A stretch of 64,000 bases of DNA from Candidatus Bathyarchaeota archaeon (GTDB lineage: Archaea; Thermoproteota; Bathyarchaeia; Bathyarchaeales; DTEX01), in the NCBI GenBank assembly GCA_018396995.1, contig JAGTQB010000001.1, forward strand, positions 1 to 64,000, written 5' to 3'. Numbering within the stretch: position 1 is the first letter of the stretch; each line of letters opens with the position of its first letter. The notes under the pieces were generated by a model. That model was not told the DNA's origin. It saw only the letters and a program-made list of their open reading frames with translations, and did no database searches. Made by a program: the position numbers and the translations under genes. Of this stretch, positions 54,710 to 63,476 are shown piece after piece.

Positions 54710-56803
54710 CTAGCCTAAAGCCTCCTCCACTATTATGCTTCTACCCTCCCTTTTATCAACTCTTATAACATAGTCCGCCTTTTCCGCAAAGGCTTCACTA
54801 TGCGTCACCGCTATGATCTGCTCAATGCTCTTTAGGCGCGAGAGCATCTCAGCTAACTTATCTATTGATCCATCTTCCCTGCCAAGACTCTCTGTCGGCT
54901 CGTCAAGTATAAGTATGCTGAGACCTCTCCCGGATTTGAGGTGCATGATTATCTGGCCTACGCCAAGCCTGTATGCGATGGCTAGGAAAGTTCTCTCGCC
55001 GCCAGATAGGTTATGCGCGCCCCTCTCATACCCTTCCTCGCCCCTCATTATTGGCGTATAACTTTCATCTATGCTGACCGATAAGGGCGGCTTTTCGGGT
55101 CCCATGAGCTCATCAAGTATCTGCTGTACGAGCTTCTCAAGGTACTTCACAAAGTCGCTGCGGATTCTTGGCTGTATGCTCCTATAGGCTGTTCTAGCCT
55201 CCTCAATGAAAGTGAGAATCCTCTTAACCTTCTCTAAGCGCTCCATCTTCTTTTGAGCCATGTCTAGCCGCCACTTAAGATTATTCAACCTATTTACTAT
55301 CTCGCTCCTCTGAGTCTCTAGGATCTGAACCCTGGACTTTATGTTTGAGTACTCCTCGAAGGCCTCATTATAGCGCTTCTGCGCCTCCTCAAGCGCGGAG
55401 TAATCGAAGCCCGCTATCATGGATAACGTTTCTTCGAGCTGTCTCCTCACCTCATTAAGCTCTATCTCTTTAACCCTCATCTCCTCGACAATTTTATTGA
55501 GGGCTTTTTTCTCATCCTCAATCTGCCTAACGATCTCCTCTCTCTTAGGAATTATGCTCTGGAGGCTGGAGAATATTGTGAATAAGGTGCTTCTCAGGCG
55601 CTCCAGCTCCTTAGCGTTTTTATCTAGCTCATTTAGTTGTTGCTTATAGTTCGCTATTTCGTCATAGAAGCGCTTCATTAGCCCCTCTTTATATTCGGGT
55701 GGAAGGGGCTGGAGACATAGAGGACACTTATTCTCCATCGCTAAGCTTGATAGGCGTTGGCTAATCCTTTTAATCTCACTTCTGACGCCTTCCTCCTCAC
55801 CCCGTATGCTCGATATCTGCCCAACAATAGCATTAATATATGCCTGTAGACTCTGAAGCGTCATATCTGCCTGAAAACCCAGCTCCGTAAGTCTCCTCCT
55901 AAAGATGCCTTCTTGACTGAGGAGCGTCTCGAGACGGCCCTCAAGCTCACTTATCTTCCGCTTCCTCTCCTTAACATCACTCATAAGTCTCATGTAAACA
56001 TTCTCAAGAGCACTGATTCTAGACTTAAGCTCCATCTCTTTAGCCCTGAGCTCATCACTTCTCCTGCGCAGCTCCATGAGCTCTCCTAATCTGGCAGATG
56101 TCTCCCTTAGTTTAGCCTCGGCTTCCGCAAGTCTCTTTTTGGCATCCTCTATCTCAGCCTCCTTAGTCACAAGCTCCCTCACAGCCTCGTCATATCTCTC
56201 CCTAACCTCCCTAGCGCCAACGACTTCCGGATCCTTAGAGAGGTTCTCCAGCTCACTCTCATACCACTTTTGGATTGATCTAATGTTAGCCCAAGAAGTC
56301 TCGTAATCAGATATCCCGAAGAGCTGATCGAGAACCCTCTGCCTATCACTTGGCGCCATATCTAGTATTTCCTTTAACCTCTCCTGCCTGATCCAAACGA
56401 TGTTTCGAAAGATATCCTTATCGAGTCCAGTAATCGACTTTAGCTGCTCTATTACTGCTTCGTTCTTCGTCTCGGCGATAAGCTTACTCCCCTCAAAGAG
56501 CTTCAGCAATTCTGGATCGTGGCTTATTTTATCTCCTCTCCTCCTAAGACCTCTCCATATAGCATATTCCTTCCCGCCCTCAACAAACTTTAATATAACC
56601 TTCCCGTAATTGGCTCCTTCTCTGAGGAGGTAATCGTAGCTTCTGCCGAGTGGCTCTCCAAATAGGGCGAAGTCTATAGCGTATAATATGCTGGTTTTCC
56701 CAGCCCCAAGTCCGCCGACAAGACAATTAAAGCCTTTGGAGAACCTCACAGTGGTCTTAACATGTGACCTAATATTCTCTATTATAACGCTTTCTATTCT
56801 CAT
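54710..56803 (-). CDS. rad50: Rad50-like SMC-family ATPase with CxxC zinc hook
   Basis: Walker A GGLGAGKTSILYAIDFALFG, hook CPLCLQPLPPEY, signature LSGGERTFLAIAYRLG, ILDEPTESLG. Confidence 0.93.
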   Translation of the reverse strand: MRIESVIIENIRSHVKTTVRFSKGFNCLVGGLGAGKTSILYAIDFALFGEPLGRSYDYLLREGANYGKVILKFVEGGKEYAIWRGLRRRGDKISHDPELLKLFEGSKLIAETKNEAVIEQLKSITGLDKDIFRNIVWIRQERLKEILDMAPSDRQRVLDQLFGISDYETSWANIRSIQKWYESELENLSKDPEVVGAREVRERYDEAVRELVTKEAEIEDAKKRLAEAEAKLRETSARLGELMELRRRSDELRAKEMELKSRISALENVYMRLMSDVKERKRKISELEGRLETLLSQEGIFRRRLTELGFQADMTLQSLQAYINAIVGQISSIRGEEEGVRSEIKRISQRLSSLAMENKCPLCLQPLPPEYKEGLMKRFYDEIANYKQQLNELDKNAKELERLRSTLFTIFSSLQSIIPKREEIVRQIEDEKKALNKIVEEMRVKEIELNEVRRQLEETLSMIAGFDYSALEEAQKRYNEAFEEYSNIKSRVQILETQRSEIVNRLNNLKWRLDMAQKKMERLEKVKRILTFIEEARTAYRSIQPRIRSDFVKYLEKLVQQILDELMGPEKPPLSVSIDESYTPIMRGEEGYERGAHNLSGGERTFLAIAYRLGVGQIIMHLKSGRGLSILILDEPTESLGREDGSIDKLAEMLSRLKSIEQIIAVTHSEAFAEKADYVIRVDKREGRSIIVEEALG

Positions 56804-58014
56804 TAGAATAGTTCCTCCAGAATCTTCCTGACCTTGCCCTCATCATCTCTAACAAGATATTGAATCAAGTCTATGGCTGCACGTGCTCTCTTCTCAGCCT
56901 CTTCACGACTATAATTGCGCTGTATGAAAAACTGTAGGAAATACTCGTAAGATTTTGTTCTCAAATCTTTCATGCCAGCATTGAAGATACCCTTTATGAT
57001 TTCCTCGGAGATTTCGGTCTCCCTCAAAAACACAATTGGGTGCACTATGAGGGCCTTCTCAGCCGCACTCCTAATTCTAGCCAAGTCAATCTCCTTCTTA
57101 GATGCCCCTACTGGGAGGACCCCCTTTAAGACAGGAACTATAACCGCCCCAGCCTCATCAGCCTCCCTCACAGTCTTCACCGCAGCCTCAACTATATCCT
57201 TTGGATGGAGCCCACTGTAATCCCTCTCTATAACCTTAAACTTGCGTGTTCTTTCGAGCTTTATATAATTTAAATTGACTTCCATGTCTCGGCTGACTTC
57301 GACATAGTAGAAGCCCTTCATGAAGGCTGCGTCTTCATAGCTCACGTTCTCCGTTGAGCCGCTGTAGGCCACGATGCCGCCCCTTAACCTGAAATGGATT
57401 GGTGCGTGTATGTGTCCACCAGCATAATAGTTAAAGCCGTCTGGAATCAGGTTTGGGCTGGCATCCGCCGCAGCCCTGGGAAAGACACTACTTATTTCTG
57501 AAGTATCTAAAGCCATGTGAAAGACAAATATATTAAATTTGTCTTTTCGGGGTGCGGGTTTTTTGAGACTATAAAAGCCTGATATCCTCTCTTCAAACCT
57601 CTCCCTCGTCCTAAAGTTTGGTATGCCGTAAACATAACAGTAATCATTCTCCCAACATGCACCATCATGTCTTGGAAGGTAACATATTAAGCCAGCAGTA
57701 TCAAGTGGATTGAGTATAGTTCCAGTCACAACGTTCGGCGCATGATCATGCGATCCATCAACAACTAGAACTGGAATATTTGCCTCCTTTAGCCTCCTAA
57801 AGTTCCTAACAGCCCTTTCCAGAGTTATGTTTGATGGTCTAGCGTGGTGGAATAGATCTCCAGCAATTATCACGAAATCAGGCCTAAGTTCCAGAACCTT
57901 CTCAACAACTTCGGAGAATGCGTTATCGAAGTCGTCTCGTCTCTCGCTGAGATTATACTGCTCATATCCGAGGTGGGTATCAGCCACATGTATAAAGGCA
58001 AAGCCACTGCTCAA
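56803..58014 (-). CDS. mre11: Mre11-like DNA repair exonuclease
   Basis: HVADTHLGYEQYNLSERRDDFDNAF, IIAGDLFHHARPSNITL, VDGSHDHAP, YAGGHIHAP; overlaps Rad50 start. Confidence 0.94.
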   Translation of the reverse strand: MSSGFAFIHVADTHLGYEQYNLSERRDDFDNAFSEVVEKVLELRPDFVIIAGDLFHHARPSNITLERAVRNFRRLKEANIPVLVVDGSHDHAPNVVTGTILNPLDTAGLICYLPRHDGACWENDYCYVYGIPNFRTRERFEERISGFYSLKKPAPRKDKFNIFVFHMALDTSEISSVFPRAAADASPNLIPDGFNYYAGGHIHAPIHFRLRGGIVAYSGSTENVSYEDAAFMKGFYYVEVSRDMEVNLNYIKLERTRKFKVIERDYSGLHPKDIVEAAVKTVREADEAGAVIVPVLKGVLPVGASKKEIDLARIRSAAEKALIVHPIVFLRETEISEEIIKGIFNAGMKDLRTKSYEYFLQFFIQRNYSREEAEKRARAAIDLIQYLVRDDEGKVRKILEELF

Positions 58015-58225: not shown

Positions 58226-58429
58226 ATGCCAATAGTTCACGTATATGTTTGGAGGGGCTTCTCTAGCGAAGCAAAGAGGAAGGTCATATCCGGTGTAACT
58301 AAGGTTTTCATTGAGTTAGGTATACCAGCGGAGGCCGTAGAGGTTCTGATACACGAGGTTCCTAAAGAAGATTGGGGAGTTGGCGGTGAGCCGGCTAGCG
58401 AGAGACTTAAACACGTCCAGCCGCCATGA
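58226..58429 (+). CDS. 4-oxalocrotonate tautomerase-family protein
   Basis: MPIVHVYVWRGFSSEAKRKVISGVTKVFIELGIPAEAVEVLIHEVPKEDWGVGG. Confidence 0.9.
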   Translation: MPIVHVYVWRGFSSEAKRKVISGVTKVFIELGIPAEAVEVLIHEVPKEDWGVGGEPASERLKHVQPP

Positions 58430-58586: not shown

Positions 58587-60620
58587 ATGCTGATAACAGA
58601 AGTGATATTAGAGAACTTTATGTCATATGAGTATGCTAGGATACCCCTTAAACCTGGCGTTAATATAATCTGTGGCCCTAATGGCGCTGGCAAATCATCT
58701 ATTCTCCTTGGAATATCAGTTGCATTGAGCCAATCCTATACTGAGCGCTCTAAAAGGCTCAGCGACCTAATAAGGTGGGGGAAGGATGTTGGTCGCGTAA
58801 CTTTGGTCTTGAATAACGCTAAGGTTAAGGGTAAGCGCCCAGTCCCAAAGATAAATAAGGATCAGATTTATTTGACTAGGGTTTTGAGGCGTGACGGCAA
58901 ATACTGGTTTGAAATCGATAATGCTGTGGCAAGTAAAGCGGATGTTTTAAGGCTCCTATCGCGTTTTAACGTTGATCCAGAGAATATGCTGATAATAATG
59001 CATCAGGATATGATTGAACAGTTTATTCTGCTCTCGCCGCAAGAGAAGCTTAGGCTCATTGAGTCAGCCACTGGTCTAGAGGCTTATCGCAGAAATGTTC
59101 TAGAAGCGCAGAGTAAGCTGAGCCGCGTATTAAGCGAGGAAGAGTCCCTAAGGAAGATGCTTGAGTCGATTGAGCAAACCCTCAATTACTGGCGTGAGCA
59201 ATATGACCGGTACCAGGAAAAGAAACAGTTGATTTTAAAGAGGCGCTTTTTAGAGCGTGAGCTGGCGTGGGCTGAGGTTGTTAGGAGGGAGGATGAGGTT
59301 GAAAAGCTGAAGAGGGAGGTTGAGGCTAAAAAGGCGGAGATAAATGCTCTTGAATCCTTAATTAGTGAGTTGGAAGATAAAACTGCTCTCCTTAAAAGTG
59401 AGGTTGCGAATCTAAAGGAGAAGAGGGGCTCTCTCCTAGAGGAGATAATATCTCTTGAGAGGGAAAGGGCTAAATATATGGTTGATATCTCAAGGAGCGG
59501 CGAAATATTAAGTAGCCTGGAAGACCTTCTCATGCACGCGGAGAAAGACCTCACAGACCTTTTAAGAAGCATTTCAAAGCCCGAAGTAAGCGTTAACTTC
59601 CACTCATGGAGCACTGTAAAAGATGATCTCGTTAGGACTGTAGGCGATTTTGAGAGGAGACTCAATGCCATCAGATCCAAAATCGGTGAGATTAAGGATT
59701 TAATGGAGATCAGCGATGTTAAGCTCGCCAATATTGAAGTTAGGCTCCTAGACATTAAGGATGAGATGCGAAGAGCTGAGGAGGAGATAGATAGATTAAC
59801 TGATACGCTCGTTGACAATAAGGTTGACTTGGCTATCCTCAATTATAAGAGGGAAACATTATTAGGTGAAATAAATTCCCTAGATAAGAAATTAGATTAT
59901 ATGCTCTTCAGCCTTAATGAAGCTGTTAAGAGGGCTGAGGAGAAGGGTGCACGCGTAGCAACTACACGGAGCCCAAACGAGATTATAGAGGAGATCAGGG
60001 TTATAGATGGGCGGCTAATGGCCATGACAGATATTTCGGAGGAGGTAGAGAGAATGTATGAATCATACTCTAAGCTTTACTTTGAATTAAAGGAGAGAGC
60101 TAAGATTGCGGCCGAGAATAAAGAGAAGACTTTGGGGGAGATTAAGGCTCGTATGGAAAAATGGAGGATGGTTATCAAGGATTTATTAAGGAGTGTTGAT
60201 GCCGAGTACCAGAACATTCTCTCAAAGATTGCCGGAGTCGGCTTTGTTCGCCTAATCAACGAGGACGATATTGAGGAGGCTGGAATAGAGATTCACGTAG
60301 GGTTCAGGGGGTCCCAGCCGATACCATTAAACATTTACTCGCAGAGTGGAGGCGAGAGGAGCGCGGCGACAATGGCATTTCTCTTAGCTCTTCAGAAGCA
60401 TATAAAATCTCCATTCAGGGCAATAGATGAATATGATGTGCACATGGATCCGAGGAATCGTGAAGTCTTTGCAAATCTTATAATATCAGCTATCGGTGAT
60501 GAAAGTTCACAATACTTAGTAATAACGCCGAACCAAATGTTCTTTGAGGGAAAAAATGTTCATGTTATTGTTGTTCAAAATATTGAGGGTAAATCACTTA
60601 TAAGGGAGGTTACTCAATGA
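58587..60620 (+). CDS. Smc5/6-like SMC ATPase (compact)
   Basis: GVNIICGPNGAGKSSILLGISVALSQS, QDMIEQFILLSPQEKLRLIESATGLEAY, SQSGGERSAATMAFLLALQ, PFRAIDEYDVHMDPRNR, SQYLVITPNQM. No CxxC hook seen. Confidence 0.9.
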   Translation: MLITEVILENFMSYEYARIPLKPGVNIICGPNGAGKSSILLGISVALSQSYTERSKRLSDLIRWGKDVGRVTLVLNNAKVKGKRPVPKINKDQIYLTRVLRRDGKYWFEIDNAVASKADVLRLLSRFNVDPENMLIIMHQDMIEQFILLSPQEKLRLIESATGLEAYRRNVLEAQSKLSRVLSEEESLRKMLESIEQTLNYWREQYDRYQEKKQLILKRRFLERELAWAEVVRREDEVEKLKREVEAKKAEINALESLISELEDKTALLKSEVANLKEKRGSLLEEIISLERERAKYMVDISRSGEILSSLEDLLMHAEKDLTDLLRSISKPEVSVNFHSWSTVKDDLVRTVGDFERRLNAIRSKIGEIKDLMEISDVKLANIEVRLLDIKDEMRRAEEEIDRLTDTLVDNKVDLAILNYKRETLLGEINSLDKKLDYMLFSLNEAVKRAEEKGARVATTRSPNEIIEEIRVIDGRLMAMTDISEEVERMYESYSKLYFELKERAKIAAENKEKTLGEIKARMEKWRMVIKDLLRSVDAEYQNILSKIAGVGFVRLINEDDIEEAGIEIHVGFRGSQPIPLNIYSQSGGERSAATMAFLLALQKHIKSPFRAIDEYDVHMDPRNREVFANLIISAIGDESSQYLVITPNQMFFEGKNVHVIVVQNIEGKSLIREVTQ

Positions 60621-61477
60621 CGTCAGAAGCGAGTAGTATGTCTAAGAAGGATATTATAGCCGCTCGCGAAGAGCTTTTACGGATAATTAACCTCTGTAAA
60701 TCTATTGAGCTCAAGGGCTTAGATCCTTATTCAGTTGATGTTGAAGATCTCATCAAAGTTATTAAGAGTTACTTTCCTATGTGGAGGGAGAATGAGGATC
60801 TTTGTTTAGACGCGGAAGCTCTTAATCACATAGCATCTGTAGTTAAAATGCAGAGTGAGTGGGTTAAGAAGAGGGCTACTAAACTTTATCGAGATCCCCT
60901 CCTAATAGAAGAAAAGATTCGTAGTTTGCCGGCGGATGAAATTGCTGAAATATTTCTCAGGGCGTGGCGTCCAATAGTTGAGCTTGAGCAACTGACAATG
61001 AGATGTTTCCGTGAGGCGCTTAAGTACTGGGGTAACCTACTCCCGCTTAGCGAGAGGTGGAAGAAAACCAGCTACATTATGACTGAACCAGAGGCTATAC
61101 GGAGAGAAGATGCTATTAAGGAAGGAGTGTTGGCAGACGAGTCCTTTATGTCCGATCTGGAGAGGATTTGGCTTGAACTAAAGAACTCTTTTCTTAAAGG
61201 CGGAAAGATTAAGTACTGGAACTTTATCAATTCAGATACTTTCGAAGAGACTATCAGAAGAGCTTACTTAACCAGTTTTCTTATAACTTATGGTTATGCA
61301 AGGCTTGAAATAAACCCCCTTGAGGACGAAATATTTATATTGCCAAACGATAAGCTTGCACGGCCCCCAGAGAGCGAAGTTATATCCTTCCCAATAGCCA
61401 TAAGCTTTGAAGAGTGGGTGAAATGGAGGGAAAAGCAAGAAGCGGAGAGAGAAAAGCATACCATGCTACAAAAATAA
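60617..61477 (+). CDS. Candidate Nse4/ScpA-like kleisin
   Basis: ATGA overlap with SMC gene. N-term LCLDAEALNHIASVVKMQSEWVKKRA; C-term YWNFINSDTFEETIRRAYLTSFLITYGYARLEINPLEDEIFILP...ISFEEWVKW resembles Nse4 C-terminal domain. Confidence 0.75.
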   Translation: MTSEASSMSKKDIIAAREELLRIINLCKSIELKGLDPYSVDVEDLIKVIKSYFPMWRENEDLCLDAEALNHIASVVKMQSEWVKKRATKLYRDPLLIEEKIRSLPADEIAEIFLRAWRPIVELEQLTMRCFREALKYWGNLLPLSERWKKTSYIMTEPEAIRREDAIKEGVLADESFMSDLERIWLELKNSFLKGGKIKYWNFINSDTFEETIRRAYLTSFLITYGYARLEINPLEDEIFILPNDKLARPPESEVISFPIAISFEEWVKWREKQEAEREKHTMLQK

Positions 61478-62007
61478 GAAAGGCTGCACAACTGCTCTTT
61501 TACAAGAGACACTCCATCCCAGGAGCGAGGGGATGGGAGCTTAAAAAGAAGATAGGCTCAGATTATCTAAAGGTCATAAACCTATTAAATGAATACTTAG
61601 CAAAGATAGGGCTCACAATTAAAACCGTCTTTGAGGAGGAGACTAACCCACCAGAGAACCCGTCAAATGAGCAGTATGATAAGGCAAGGTTTTACATTAC
61701 ATTAAAGGATGAGGTAAACGTTGAAGATGCTAAGATGATGGGCTGGCGAATAGATGACCTAGCGGCACTATGCGCCTCAATAGCATTCATAATCTCTAGG
61801 GGCGGGAAGGCTCCAAGAAAAGAACTAGAAGATTTATTAAGGGCTAAGATTCCAGAGTGGCGTGTTGAAACAAGCATTAATAAGTTTGTGAGGATGGGTT
61901 ATCTGATTGAGGATGAGGATGAAATGATATATATAGGGTGGAGAACAAGGGCTGAAGTTGACCAAAAGAAGCTGTTAGACTTATTGCTCGAAGCCGAAGG
62001 CAAATGA
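61423..62007 (+). CDS. Candidate MAGE/Nse3-like tandem winged-helix (KITE) protein (track start 61414 GTG; in-frame ATG at 61423)
   Basis: KAAQLLFYKRHSIPGARGWELKKKI...LLNEYLAKIGLTIKTVFEE...YITL and LAALCASIAFIISRGGKAPRKELEDLL...FVRMGYLIEDEDEMIYIGWRTRAEVDQKKLLDLLLE follow the MAGE domain pattern. Confidence 0.75.
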   Translation: MEGKARSGERKAYHATKIRKAAQLLFYKRHSIPGARGWELKKKIGSDYLKVINLLNEYLAKIGLTIKTVFEEETNPPENPSNEQYDKARFYITLKDEVNVEDAKMMGWRIDDLAALCASIAFIISRGGKAPRKELEDLLRAKIPEWRVETSINKFVRMGYLIEDEDEMIYIGWRTRAEVDQKKLLDLLLEAEGK

Positions 62008-62529: not shown

Positions 62530-62655
62530 TTAAAGCCGCATTTTATCCAAAATGCTCTTAATTCTCCTATAATCCTCTAGAAACTCCTTACCTTTATCAG
62601 TTGTTTTAAATATTTCTGTGTTATTATCTTGCTTTAAATTACTGAGTAAACCTAG
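62530..62655 (-). pseudogene. 3' fragment of a winged-helix regulator-like gene
   Basis: LGLLSNLKQDNNTEIFKTTDKGKEFLEDYRRIKSILDKM resembles the end of archaeal wHTH regulators; the upstream part of the ORF is antisense to the neighbouring fragment. Confidence 0.55.
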
Positions 62656-62975
62656 CGGTTTATTGGGATAACACATGCACAAATCCAGTAACAGCAATAG
62701 ACTGGGGGACAATTCGCCCTGGTGAATCAATGCCACTTGAGATATTTATAAAGAATACAGGGAATGTTCCAATAACGCTGTCATTATCAACGGAAGGTTG
62801 GGACCCCTCTAACGCTGGAAGTTACATAACTTTAACATGGGATTATATAAGTGGGACAAAAGTTCAGCCGGGCAGCGTCTTAAAAGTAACCTTAAAGTTA
62901 ACGGTTTCAAGCAGCGTTCAAGGAATAACAAGCTTCAGCTTTAACATTGTCATAACTGGGACAGAGAGCCCGTAG
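62650..62975 (+). pseudogene. 5'-truncated paralogue of the secreted protein at 63036-63476
   Basis: In-frame VNLAVYWDNTCTNPVTAIDWGTIRPGES-MPLEIFIKNTGNVPITLSLSTEGW aligns to VVGISVYSDKSCRNVLTSIDWGIIRPGSSKSIMVYVKNTGNVIVRLSLSTENW; no signal peptide. Confidence 0.8.
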
Positions 62976-63035
62976 ATTACATAGGATTTCAATGGGTTAT
63001 CCCTCCAGCGTTAAAGAAATCGTGCTGGTGGGATT

Positions 63036-63476
63036 ATGAGAAGGACCCTCATTATATCGTTATTTTTAGCATCATTATTAATGGTTACCTTAGCTGTGAA
63101 TCAATCTTTTGGCTTAAGTGCGTCTAGAAGGAATATTCAAATAAAAGTTGTTGGCATCTCAGTTTACTCTGATAAATCGTGTAGAAATGTTCTTACGTCG
63201 ATTGATTGGGGCATTATTAGGCCCGGCTCATCAAAAAGTATCATGGTGTATGTGAAGAATACTGGCAACGTGATAGTAAGATTATCGTTGTCTACAGAGA
63301 ATTGGATCCCTGAACAAGCCTCAAAATATATCTCACTAACATGGAATTATATGGGACAGAGGCTTCTGCCCGGCAGAGTGCTAAGCCTAACCTTAACGCT
63401 AACGGTCTCGCCAGAGATATCGGACATAAGGAACTTCAGCTTTGACATAGTTATAACTGGACTGGCAATCTCCTAA
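63036..63476 (+). CDS. Secreted/anchored beta-sandwich-like protein (full-length paralogue)
   Basis: N-terminal signal MRRTLIISLFLASLLMVTLAVNQSFG; VKNTGNV beta-sandwich-like segment. Confidence 0.8.
   Translation: MRRTLIISLFLASLLMVTLAVNQSFGLSASRRNIQIKVVGISVYSDKSCRNVLTSIDWGIIRPGSSKSIMVYVKNTGNVIVRLSLSTENWIPEQASKYISLTWNYMGQRLLPGRVLSLTLTLTVSPEISDIRNFSFDIVITGLAIS

What the first reader, a model, noticed from the sequence alone, without database searches (positions are those of the whole stretch)
58587..60620. SMC ATPase combining Smc5-like and Smc6-like signatures in one short polypeptide
Seen: 'PFRAIDEYDVHMDPRNR' resembles the Smc6 'FRAxDEFDVFMD' Walker B region, while 'SQYLVITPNQM' resembles Smc5 'SQYFxITPKLL' and 'QDMIEQFILLSPQEKLRLIESATG' resembles the Smc5 'PQDKVxEFAKLSPxELLxATQ' segment. 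'SQSGGERSAATMAFLLALQ' fits both. At 677 aa the arms are short, and I see neither a Rad50 CxxC hook nor an obvious full SMC hinge; the mid-region 'SISKPEVSVNFHSWSTVKDDL' is the likely turn. Inference: it may sit near the root of the Smc5/Smc6 split and use a minimal hinge.
Basis: partly seen in the sequence, partly recalled or inferred. Interest (0 to 1): 0.8.

Follow-up and report, generated by a model that had tools for sequence, protein, structure and literature searches.

The report
Archaeal three-gene Smc5/6-like complex
This archaeal gene heads a conserved three-gene unit that appears to encode a stripped-down, single-copy relative of Smc5/6, the DNA-repair machine of human and yeast cells, complete with its bridging (kleisin) and DNA-clamping (KITE) partners but without the usual hinge, which bears directly on how that machine arose.

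Summary
The reading is right about the protein and missed its partners. The 677-aa ORF (58587-60620) is an intact SMC ATPase. Its family profile matches Smc6/Smc5 best in the whole PDB (the best ten sequences). Head trees put it with Smc5+Smc6 (support 97/94 and 99/97), apart from canonical SMC and Smc1-4, although AU tests do not firmly exclude alternatives. It has no SMC hinge, no CxxC hook, and arms about half canonical length.

Two overlapping genes follow. 60617-61477 is an Nse4-type kleisin: family profile against PDB gives yeast Nse4 9e-6 and human NSE4B 3e-5, and the fold search also puts Nse4 first. 61414-62007 is a tandem winged-helix KITE: fold search gives Nse1/Nse3 first, and its two commonest Pfam matches are MAGE(Nse3) and Nse1.

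The trio is conserved across the archaeal phylum: kleisin in 159 of 397 genomes, with the SMC always about 570-730 aa. A separate canonical Smc with an ScpA-like kleisin sits elsewhere in the same genome. So this looks like a homomeric, hingeless Smc5/6-type core. "SMC5/6-related" archaeal SMCs are published; no held paper reports their kleisin/KITE partners. Whether it predates the Smc5/Smc6 split is unresolved, and the proposed "turn" is a non-conserved tip, not a minimal hinge.

The parts
58587..60620 (+). Short (677 aa) Smc5/6-type SMC ATPase, hingeless
58674..58700 (+). Walker A GPNGAGKSS (residues 30-38)
59562..59636 (+). Tip of the coiled-coil hairpin (residues about 326-350); least conserved part, absent in about half of homologues; no hinge domain
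60339..60362 (+). ABC signature SQSGGERS (residues 585-592), Smc5-like
60414..60449 (+). Walker B FRAIDEYDVHMD (residues 610-621), Smc6-like
60617..61477 (+). Nse4-type kleisin (286 aa); start overlaps the SMC stop by 4 nt (ATGA)
61220..61435 (+). Nse4_C-like C-terminal winged helix of the kleisin (residues 202-273)
   Evidence: Pfam Nse4_C E=7e-4 for this copy, best 5.6e-9 in the family
61414..62007 (+). Nse1/Nse3-type KITE, tandem winged helix (197 aa from GTG 61414; homologues favour ATG 61423, 194 aa); overlaps the kleisin end

Best explanation
The three overlapping genes encode a minimal archaeal Smc5/6-type SMC-kleisin-KITE complex. By inference, two copies of the one SMC pair through their ATP-bound heads, the Nse4-like kleisin links the neck of one SMC to the head (cap) of the other, and copies of the one KITE sit on the middle of the kleisin and press DNA onto the heads. 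ATP binding and hydrolysis then load DNA through the neck gate and hold it in the clamp. There is no hinge, so either the arm tips pair through short coiled coil or the complex is closed only at the head/kleisin end and works as a DNA clamp rather than a large ring. The likely cellular job is holding or resolving DNA repair/recombination intermediates, working apart from the canonical Smc-ScpA chromosome organiser of the same cell. Shown here: gene order, intact ATPase motifs, kleisin and KITE homology, lack of hinge and hook, wide conservation. Inferred: stoichiometry, clamp mechanism, repair role.
For: SMC: family profile hits Smc6/Smc5 of human and yeast as the 10 best PDB sequences, E 3e-61 to 5e-40 (human SMC5, the tenth, ties with archaeal Smc 5xei at 5e-40), then Smc2 at 6e-31; single-sequence best hits are Smc5; trees 97/94 and 99/97 for {this family+Smc5+Smc6}; shared motifs. 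Kleisin: diverse-family profile gives yeast Nse4 8.8e-6, human NSE4B 3.3e-5, ScpA C-terminal domains 0.012-0.015 and ScpA N-domain 0.1; Nse4_C in 30/34 and 23/39 members, best 5.6e-9; predicted fold has an N-terminal helical bundle plus C-terminal winged helix, and its best PDB match of 350,542 chains is Nse4. KITE: two winged helices; best PDB fold matches are the MAGE-G1/NSE1 and Nse1-Nse3-Nse4 structures (6e-6 to 1e-4), then JetB and MukE; the two commonest Pfam families among members are MAGE (8, 2.7e-4) and SMC_Nse1 (6, 1.2e-4). Linkage: kleisin and KITE are together in 40 of 40 diverse loci, with the SMC directly upstream in 34 and elsewhere in 5 of the other 6 genomes. Separate canonical SMC with hinge and ScpA-like kleisin in the own genome. 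Lhr-type helicase is convergent next to the KITE gene in 21 loci.
Against: No biochemistry. AU tests do not firmly reject the short SMC grouping with canonical SMC (p 0.06, 0.14) or Rad50 (p 0.02, 0.12). Only one SMC and one KITE gene, no hinge, no RING and no Nse2/5/6 gene in the unit, so it differs strongly from eukaryotic Smc5/6. This window's own kleisin and KITE score below Pfam cut-offs; the case rests on families and folds. A designed repeat protein ranks among the kleisin profile hits at 1.2e-5, so E-values near 1e-5 are not by themselves proof; the KITE profile hits Nse1 in PDB only at 0.5. Whole-model TM-scores are low because domain orientation is not fixed. The repair role rests on neighbours only.
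Confidence: 0.78

Rival explanations
1. A degenerate canonical prokaryotic Smc-ScpAB complex that lost its hinge and half its arms; resemblance to Smc5/6 is convergent or retained from the common ancestor of all SMCs.
For: AU test does not firmly exclude a clade with canonical SMC (p 0.06 and 0.14). ScpA domains are the next-best kleisin matches; KITEs also occur in Smc-ScpAB.
Against: A separate canonical SMC (1187 aa, hinge E=7e-26) with an adjacent ScpA-like kleisin exists in the same genome. Heads, kleisin and KITE each independently match the Smc5/6 counterpart best.
Confidence: 0.12
2. A member of the archaea-specific SMC-related proteins (ASRP: coalescin ClsN, Sph), acting alone in chromosome compartments.
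For: Similar length; NCBIfam ASRP model matches at 92 bits.
Against: Far below the ASRP cut-off of 300 bits, and Rad50 of this genome scores higher on it (114). ASRPs mostly carry a zinc hook and have no common flanking genes (PMC9389158); here 0 of 30 have a hook and the flanking genes are strictly conserved.
Confidence: 0.03
3. A Wadjet/MksBEF-like defence system that senses and destroys plasmids or viral DNA.
For: KITE-kleisin-SMC composition; JetB and MukE are the next KITE fold matches; eukaryotic Smc5/6 itself restricts foreign DNA.
Against: No JetD-like nuclease gene in the unit; kleisin and KITE match no PADLOC model; conserved position across a phylum next to an Lhr helicase rather than a patchy, island-like distribution.
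Confidence: 0.05

Closest known systems
Eukaryotic Smc5/6 complex core (Smc5, Smc6, Nse4, Nse1, Nse3)
   Same: SMC heads in the same supported clade; Nse4-type kleisin; Nse1/Nse3-type KITE; Smc5/6 motifs QSGGER, DE-x-D-x-MD-x2-NR, ITP.
   Different: One SMC instead of two, one KITE instead of two, no hinge, arms about half length, no RING on the KITE, no Nse2/5/6 in the unit.
[quoted passage not shown] used again in PMC9389158)
   Same: Archaeal SMCs grouping with eukaryotic Smc5/6; probably includes this family (sequence list not seen here).
   Different: The parts of PMC9389158 read here say nothing about kleisin, KITE or loss of the hinge in that group; the 2021 paper was not available.
Canonical Smc-ScpA(B)
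   Same: SMC-kleisin(-KITE) plan; weak ScpA similarity of the kleisin ends.
   Different: Long arms with hinge; present separately in the same genome.
ASRP (coalescin/Sph) and Rad50
   Same: SMC superfamily ATPases, ASRP of similar length.
   Different: Zinc hook, no kleisin/KITE genes linked.
MukBEF / Wadjet (JetABCD)
   Same: KITE-based SMC complexes; the KITE fold also matches JetB and MukE.
   Different: Different SMC heads and kleisins; Wadjet has a nuclease subunit.

Membership tests
Eukaryotic-type Smc5/6 complex | SMC heads in the Smc5/6 clade | tested here: met
   Branch support 97/94 and 99/97, profile top hits, motifs; AU tests not decisive
Eukaryotic-type Smc5/6 complex | Nse4 kleisin | tested here: met
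Eukaryotic-type Smc5/6 complex | KITE subunits of Nse1/Nse3 type | tested here: met
   a single gene rather than two
Eukaryotic-type Smc5/6 complex | Two different SMCs (Smc5 and Smc6) | tested here: not met
   One such gene in the own genome; the other SMC-type hits are canonical SMC, Rad50 and one weak 944-aa frame not examined
Eukaryotic-type Smc5/6 complex | Hinge dimerisation domain | tested here: not met
Eukaryotic-type Smc5/6 complex | RING domain on Nse1 | tested here: not met
   KITE has one cysteine
Eukaryotic-type Smc5/6 complex | Nse2 SUMO ligase, Nse5/Nse6 | not tested
   None recognised among conserved neighbours; genome not searched for them
SMC-kleisin-KITE complexes (broad class) | SMC ATPase, kleisin with N-helical and C-winged-helix ends, tandem winged-helix KITE | tested here: met
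Canonical Smc-ScpA | Long arms with SMC_hinge and ScpA partner | tested here: not met
ASRP (coalescin/Sph) | Zinc hook and score over the family cut-off | tested here: not met
   92 of 300 bits; no CxxC
Rad50 | Zinc hook, Rad50 head, partner Mre11 | tested here: not met
   Own Rad50 is a separate gene at 54710-56803 next to Mre11; tree
Wadjet/MksBEF | JetA, JetB, JetD partners | tested here: not met
   Kleisin and KITE match no PADLOC model; no JetD-like gene seen among conserved neighbours

The most novel reading that the evidence does not exclude
Archaea keep a homomeric ancestor-like Smc5/6 complex: one SMC before the Smc5/Smc6 split, one KITE before the Nse1/Nse3 split and one Nse4 kleisin, working without any hinge. 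This would mean that the whole Smc5/6 core, not just its SMC, was inherited by eukaryotes from archaea, and that a hinge is not needed for an Smc5/6-type DNA clamp.
Probability: 0.5. Interest if true: 0.9.

Novelty: new variant of a known kind. Interest (0 to 1): 0.78.

Why it matters
Smc5/6 has been treated as a eukaryotic complex whose non-SMC partners have no known archaeal source: a 2023 review lists KITE-based complexes only as eukaryotic Smc5/6 and the prokaryotic Smc-ScpAB and MukBEF/MksBEF/Wadjet (PMC10512200), and archaeal Smc complexes were reported to lack a KITE (PMC7055376). A three-gene archaeal unit with all three kinds of core subunit gives a simple system for asking what the conserved core does. 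Its missing hinge makes a natural test of whether ring closure is needed; in yeast Smc5/6 the hinge is not the DNA entry gate (PMC10191858).

Tried and rejected
Rad50, canonical SMC, ASRP and Wadjet memberships were tested and rejected or disfavoured. The mid-region as a mini-hinge was rejected on conservation. Single-sequence Pfam hits for kleisin and KITE were below cut-offs, so families were built. The Bathyarchaeia-only KITE profile gave no useful PDB sequence hit, nor did the diverse one beyond Nse1 at 0.5; the fold search and member scans did. A viral-contig scan found no relatives. Searches outside this phylum (Asgard, Euryarchaeota) were not possible: no handle to such genomes. Yoshinaga and Inagaki 2021 not held.

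Full report
OBSERVATION. The 677-aa ORF at 58587-60620 (+) exists as described, with intact Walker A, signature and Walker B motifs and a strong SMC_N match. Close relatives occur in dozens of Bathyarchaeota genomes. The window lies in a 1.46-Mb genome, 98.5% complete.

WHAT SURROUNDS IT. The SMC stop overlaps the start of a 286-aa ORF (ATGA, 60617), whose end overlaps a 197-aa ORF (homologues favour ATG 61423 as its start). Pfam gives weak but telling hits: Nse4_C (7e-4) and MAGE, the Nse3 family (0.07). In the Bathyarchaeia loci both genes follow the SMC in the same order, mostly with overlaps of a few to about 55 nt or short gaps. A profile of the 286-aa protein finds matches in 159 of 397 genomes and 84 of 170 genera of the phylum. 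In 40 loci chosen for diversity, kleisin and KITE occur together in all 40 and the SMC is directly upstream in 34. In the six others it lies about 2 kb away (L097), about 9 kb away (G080, G187) or elsewhere in the genome (G307, G014), and was not found only in G385, an 85%-complete genome.

KLEISIN. Using the diverse family (A4), the best PDB sequences are yeast Nse4 (8.8e-6) and human NSE4B/EID3 (3.3e-5), then ScpA C-terminal domains (0.012-0.015) and an ScpA N-terminal domain (0.1) aligned to the other end. One designed helical repeat protein ranks among them (1.2e-5), so the call does not rest on E-value alone. The narrower profile gave Nse4 for its best four hits. Nse4_C is found in 30 of 34 and 23 of 39 members, best 5.6e-9, with no other family of comparable count. 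The predicted structure (pLDDT 81) has an N-terminal helical bundle with a long helix and a C-terminal winged helix. Its best fold match is Nse4 in the Smc5/6 holocomplex (2.7e-4), followed by Nse4 again, ScpA and other kleisins.

KITE. The predicted structure (pLDDT 83) is two winged helices. Best fold matches: MAGE-G1/NSE1 (6e-6) and Nse1-Nse3-Nse4 (5e-5, 1e-4), then JetB and MukE. Member by member, the two commonest Pfam families of 24,736 are MAGE (8 members, 2.7e-4) and SMC_Nse1 (6 members, 1.2e-4), so the family resembles both Nse3 and Nse1. It has one cysteine and thus no RING.

SMC. The family profile gives ten Smc6/Smc5 sequences of human and yeast as the ten best in PDB (3e-61 to 5e-40; the tenth, human SMC5, ties with archaeal Smc 5xei), then Smc2 (6e-31). 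Trees from head regions (N- and C-terminal parts, 329-332 columns) give {archaeal family + Smc5 + Smc6} 97/94 and 99/97, against {canonical archaeal and bacterial SMC + Smc2/Smc3} 97/91 and 99/97. AU tests for joining the family to canonical SMC (p 0.06, 0.14) or Rad50 (p 0.02, 0.12) are not decisive, with a long Rad50 outgroup. The order among the archaeal family, Smc5 and Smc6 is unresolved. Motifs: QSGGER in 74 of 76 family members, DE[YFI]D-x-x-MD-x2-NR in 55 of 76, neither in 7 canonical SMCs and 3 Rad50s.

NO HINGE. Walker A to signature is 437-562 residues against 1039-1066 in canonical SMCs. No member matches SMC_hinge, while canonical SMCs of several of the same genomes do. No CxxC in the arms of 30 members. 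The tip (326-350) is 9% identical and gapped in half of members. A conserved segment of the returning arm (about 450-545) is kept.

TWO SMC SYSTEMS. The own genome also has a canonical 1187-aa SMC with hinge and an adjacent ScpA-like kleisin and Mre11-Rad50. In 7 of 18 genomes checked no long canonical SMC was found and the short SMC is the only one besides Rad50-type hits.

MECHANISM. Shown: gene order, intact ATPase motifs, kleisin and KITE homology, absence of hinge and hook, wide conservation. Inferred from known KITE complexes (PMC10191858, PMC10512200): an asymmetric kleisin bridge between two identical SMCs, a KITE dimer clamping DNA on ATP-engaged heads, loading through the neck gate. 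Without a hinge the complex may be an open-ended clamp or may pair through coiled-coil tips. A role in DNA repair or recombination is suggested by an Lhr-type helicase convergent with the KITE gene in 21 loci and, in close relatives only, by Mre11-Rad50 next door.

KNOWN OR NEW. Archaeal 'SMC5/6-related' SMCs are published (Yoshinaga and Inagaki, cited in PMC9389158). Ten full-text searches found no paper describing an archaeal Nse4-type kleisin or Nse1/3-type KITE partner. bioRxiv and most subscription papers were not covered, so prior report cannot be excluded.

Noticed in passing
L096-L126 (e.g. L096:7280-10177, -): An Lhr-type DEAD helicase (about 960 aa, DEAD_assoc and WH_Lhr domains) is convergent and directly adjacent to the KITE gene in 21 loci from many families; suggests a functional link with the SMC unit.
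   Followed up: partly
29 loci, e.g. L107:3335-4072 (-), L016:65-769 (-): A conserved protein of about 235 aa with no Pfam or NCBIfam match is often divergently transcribed upstream of the SMC gene.
   Followed up: partly
L135:1453-5370 (-): Canonical SMC of another genome (G006) carries an intein inserted at the Walker A motif (GSGK/C; Intein_splicing 1.5e-12, intein_Nterm 5e-7). G022's 1320-aa SMC may carry one too (not tested).
   Followed up: partly
window 54710-58014 (-): Rad50 (697 aa, with zinc hook) and Mre11 lie divergently upstream; a Mre11 gene is near this SMC only in two close relatives (L005, L007).
   Followed up: yes
window 58226-58429 (+): Small 4-oxalocrotonate-type tautomerase gene (67 aa) between Mre11 and the SMC.
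   Followed up: no
window 62640-63476 (+): Two similar secreted-protein-like repeats of unknown function (ITLSLSTEGWDPSNAGSYITLTWDYISG / VRLSLSTENWIPEQASKYISLTWNYMGQ), the first apparently lacking its start; no Pfam match for the first.
   Followed up: no
A lead only.
   Followed up: no
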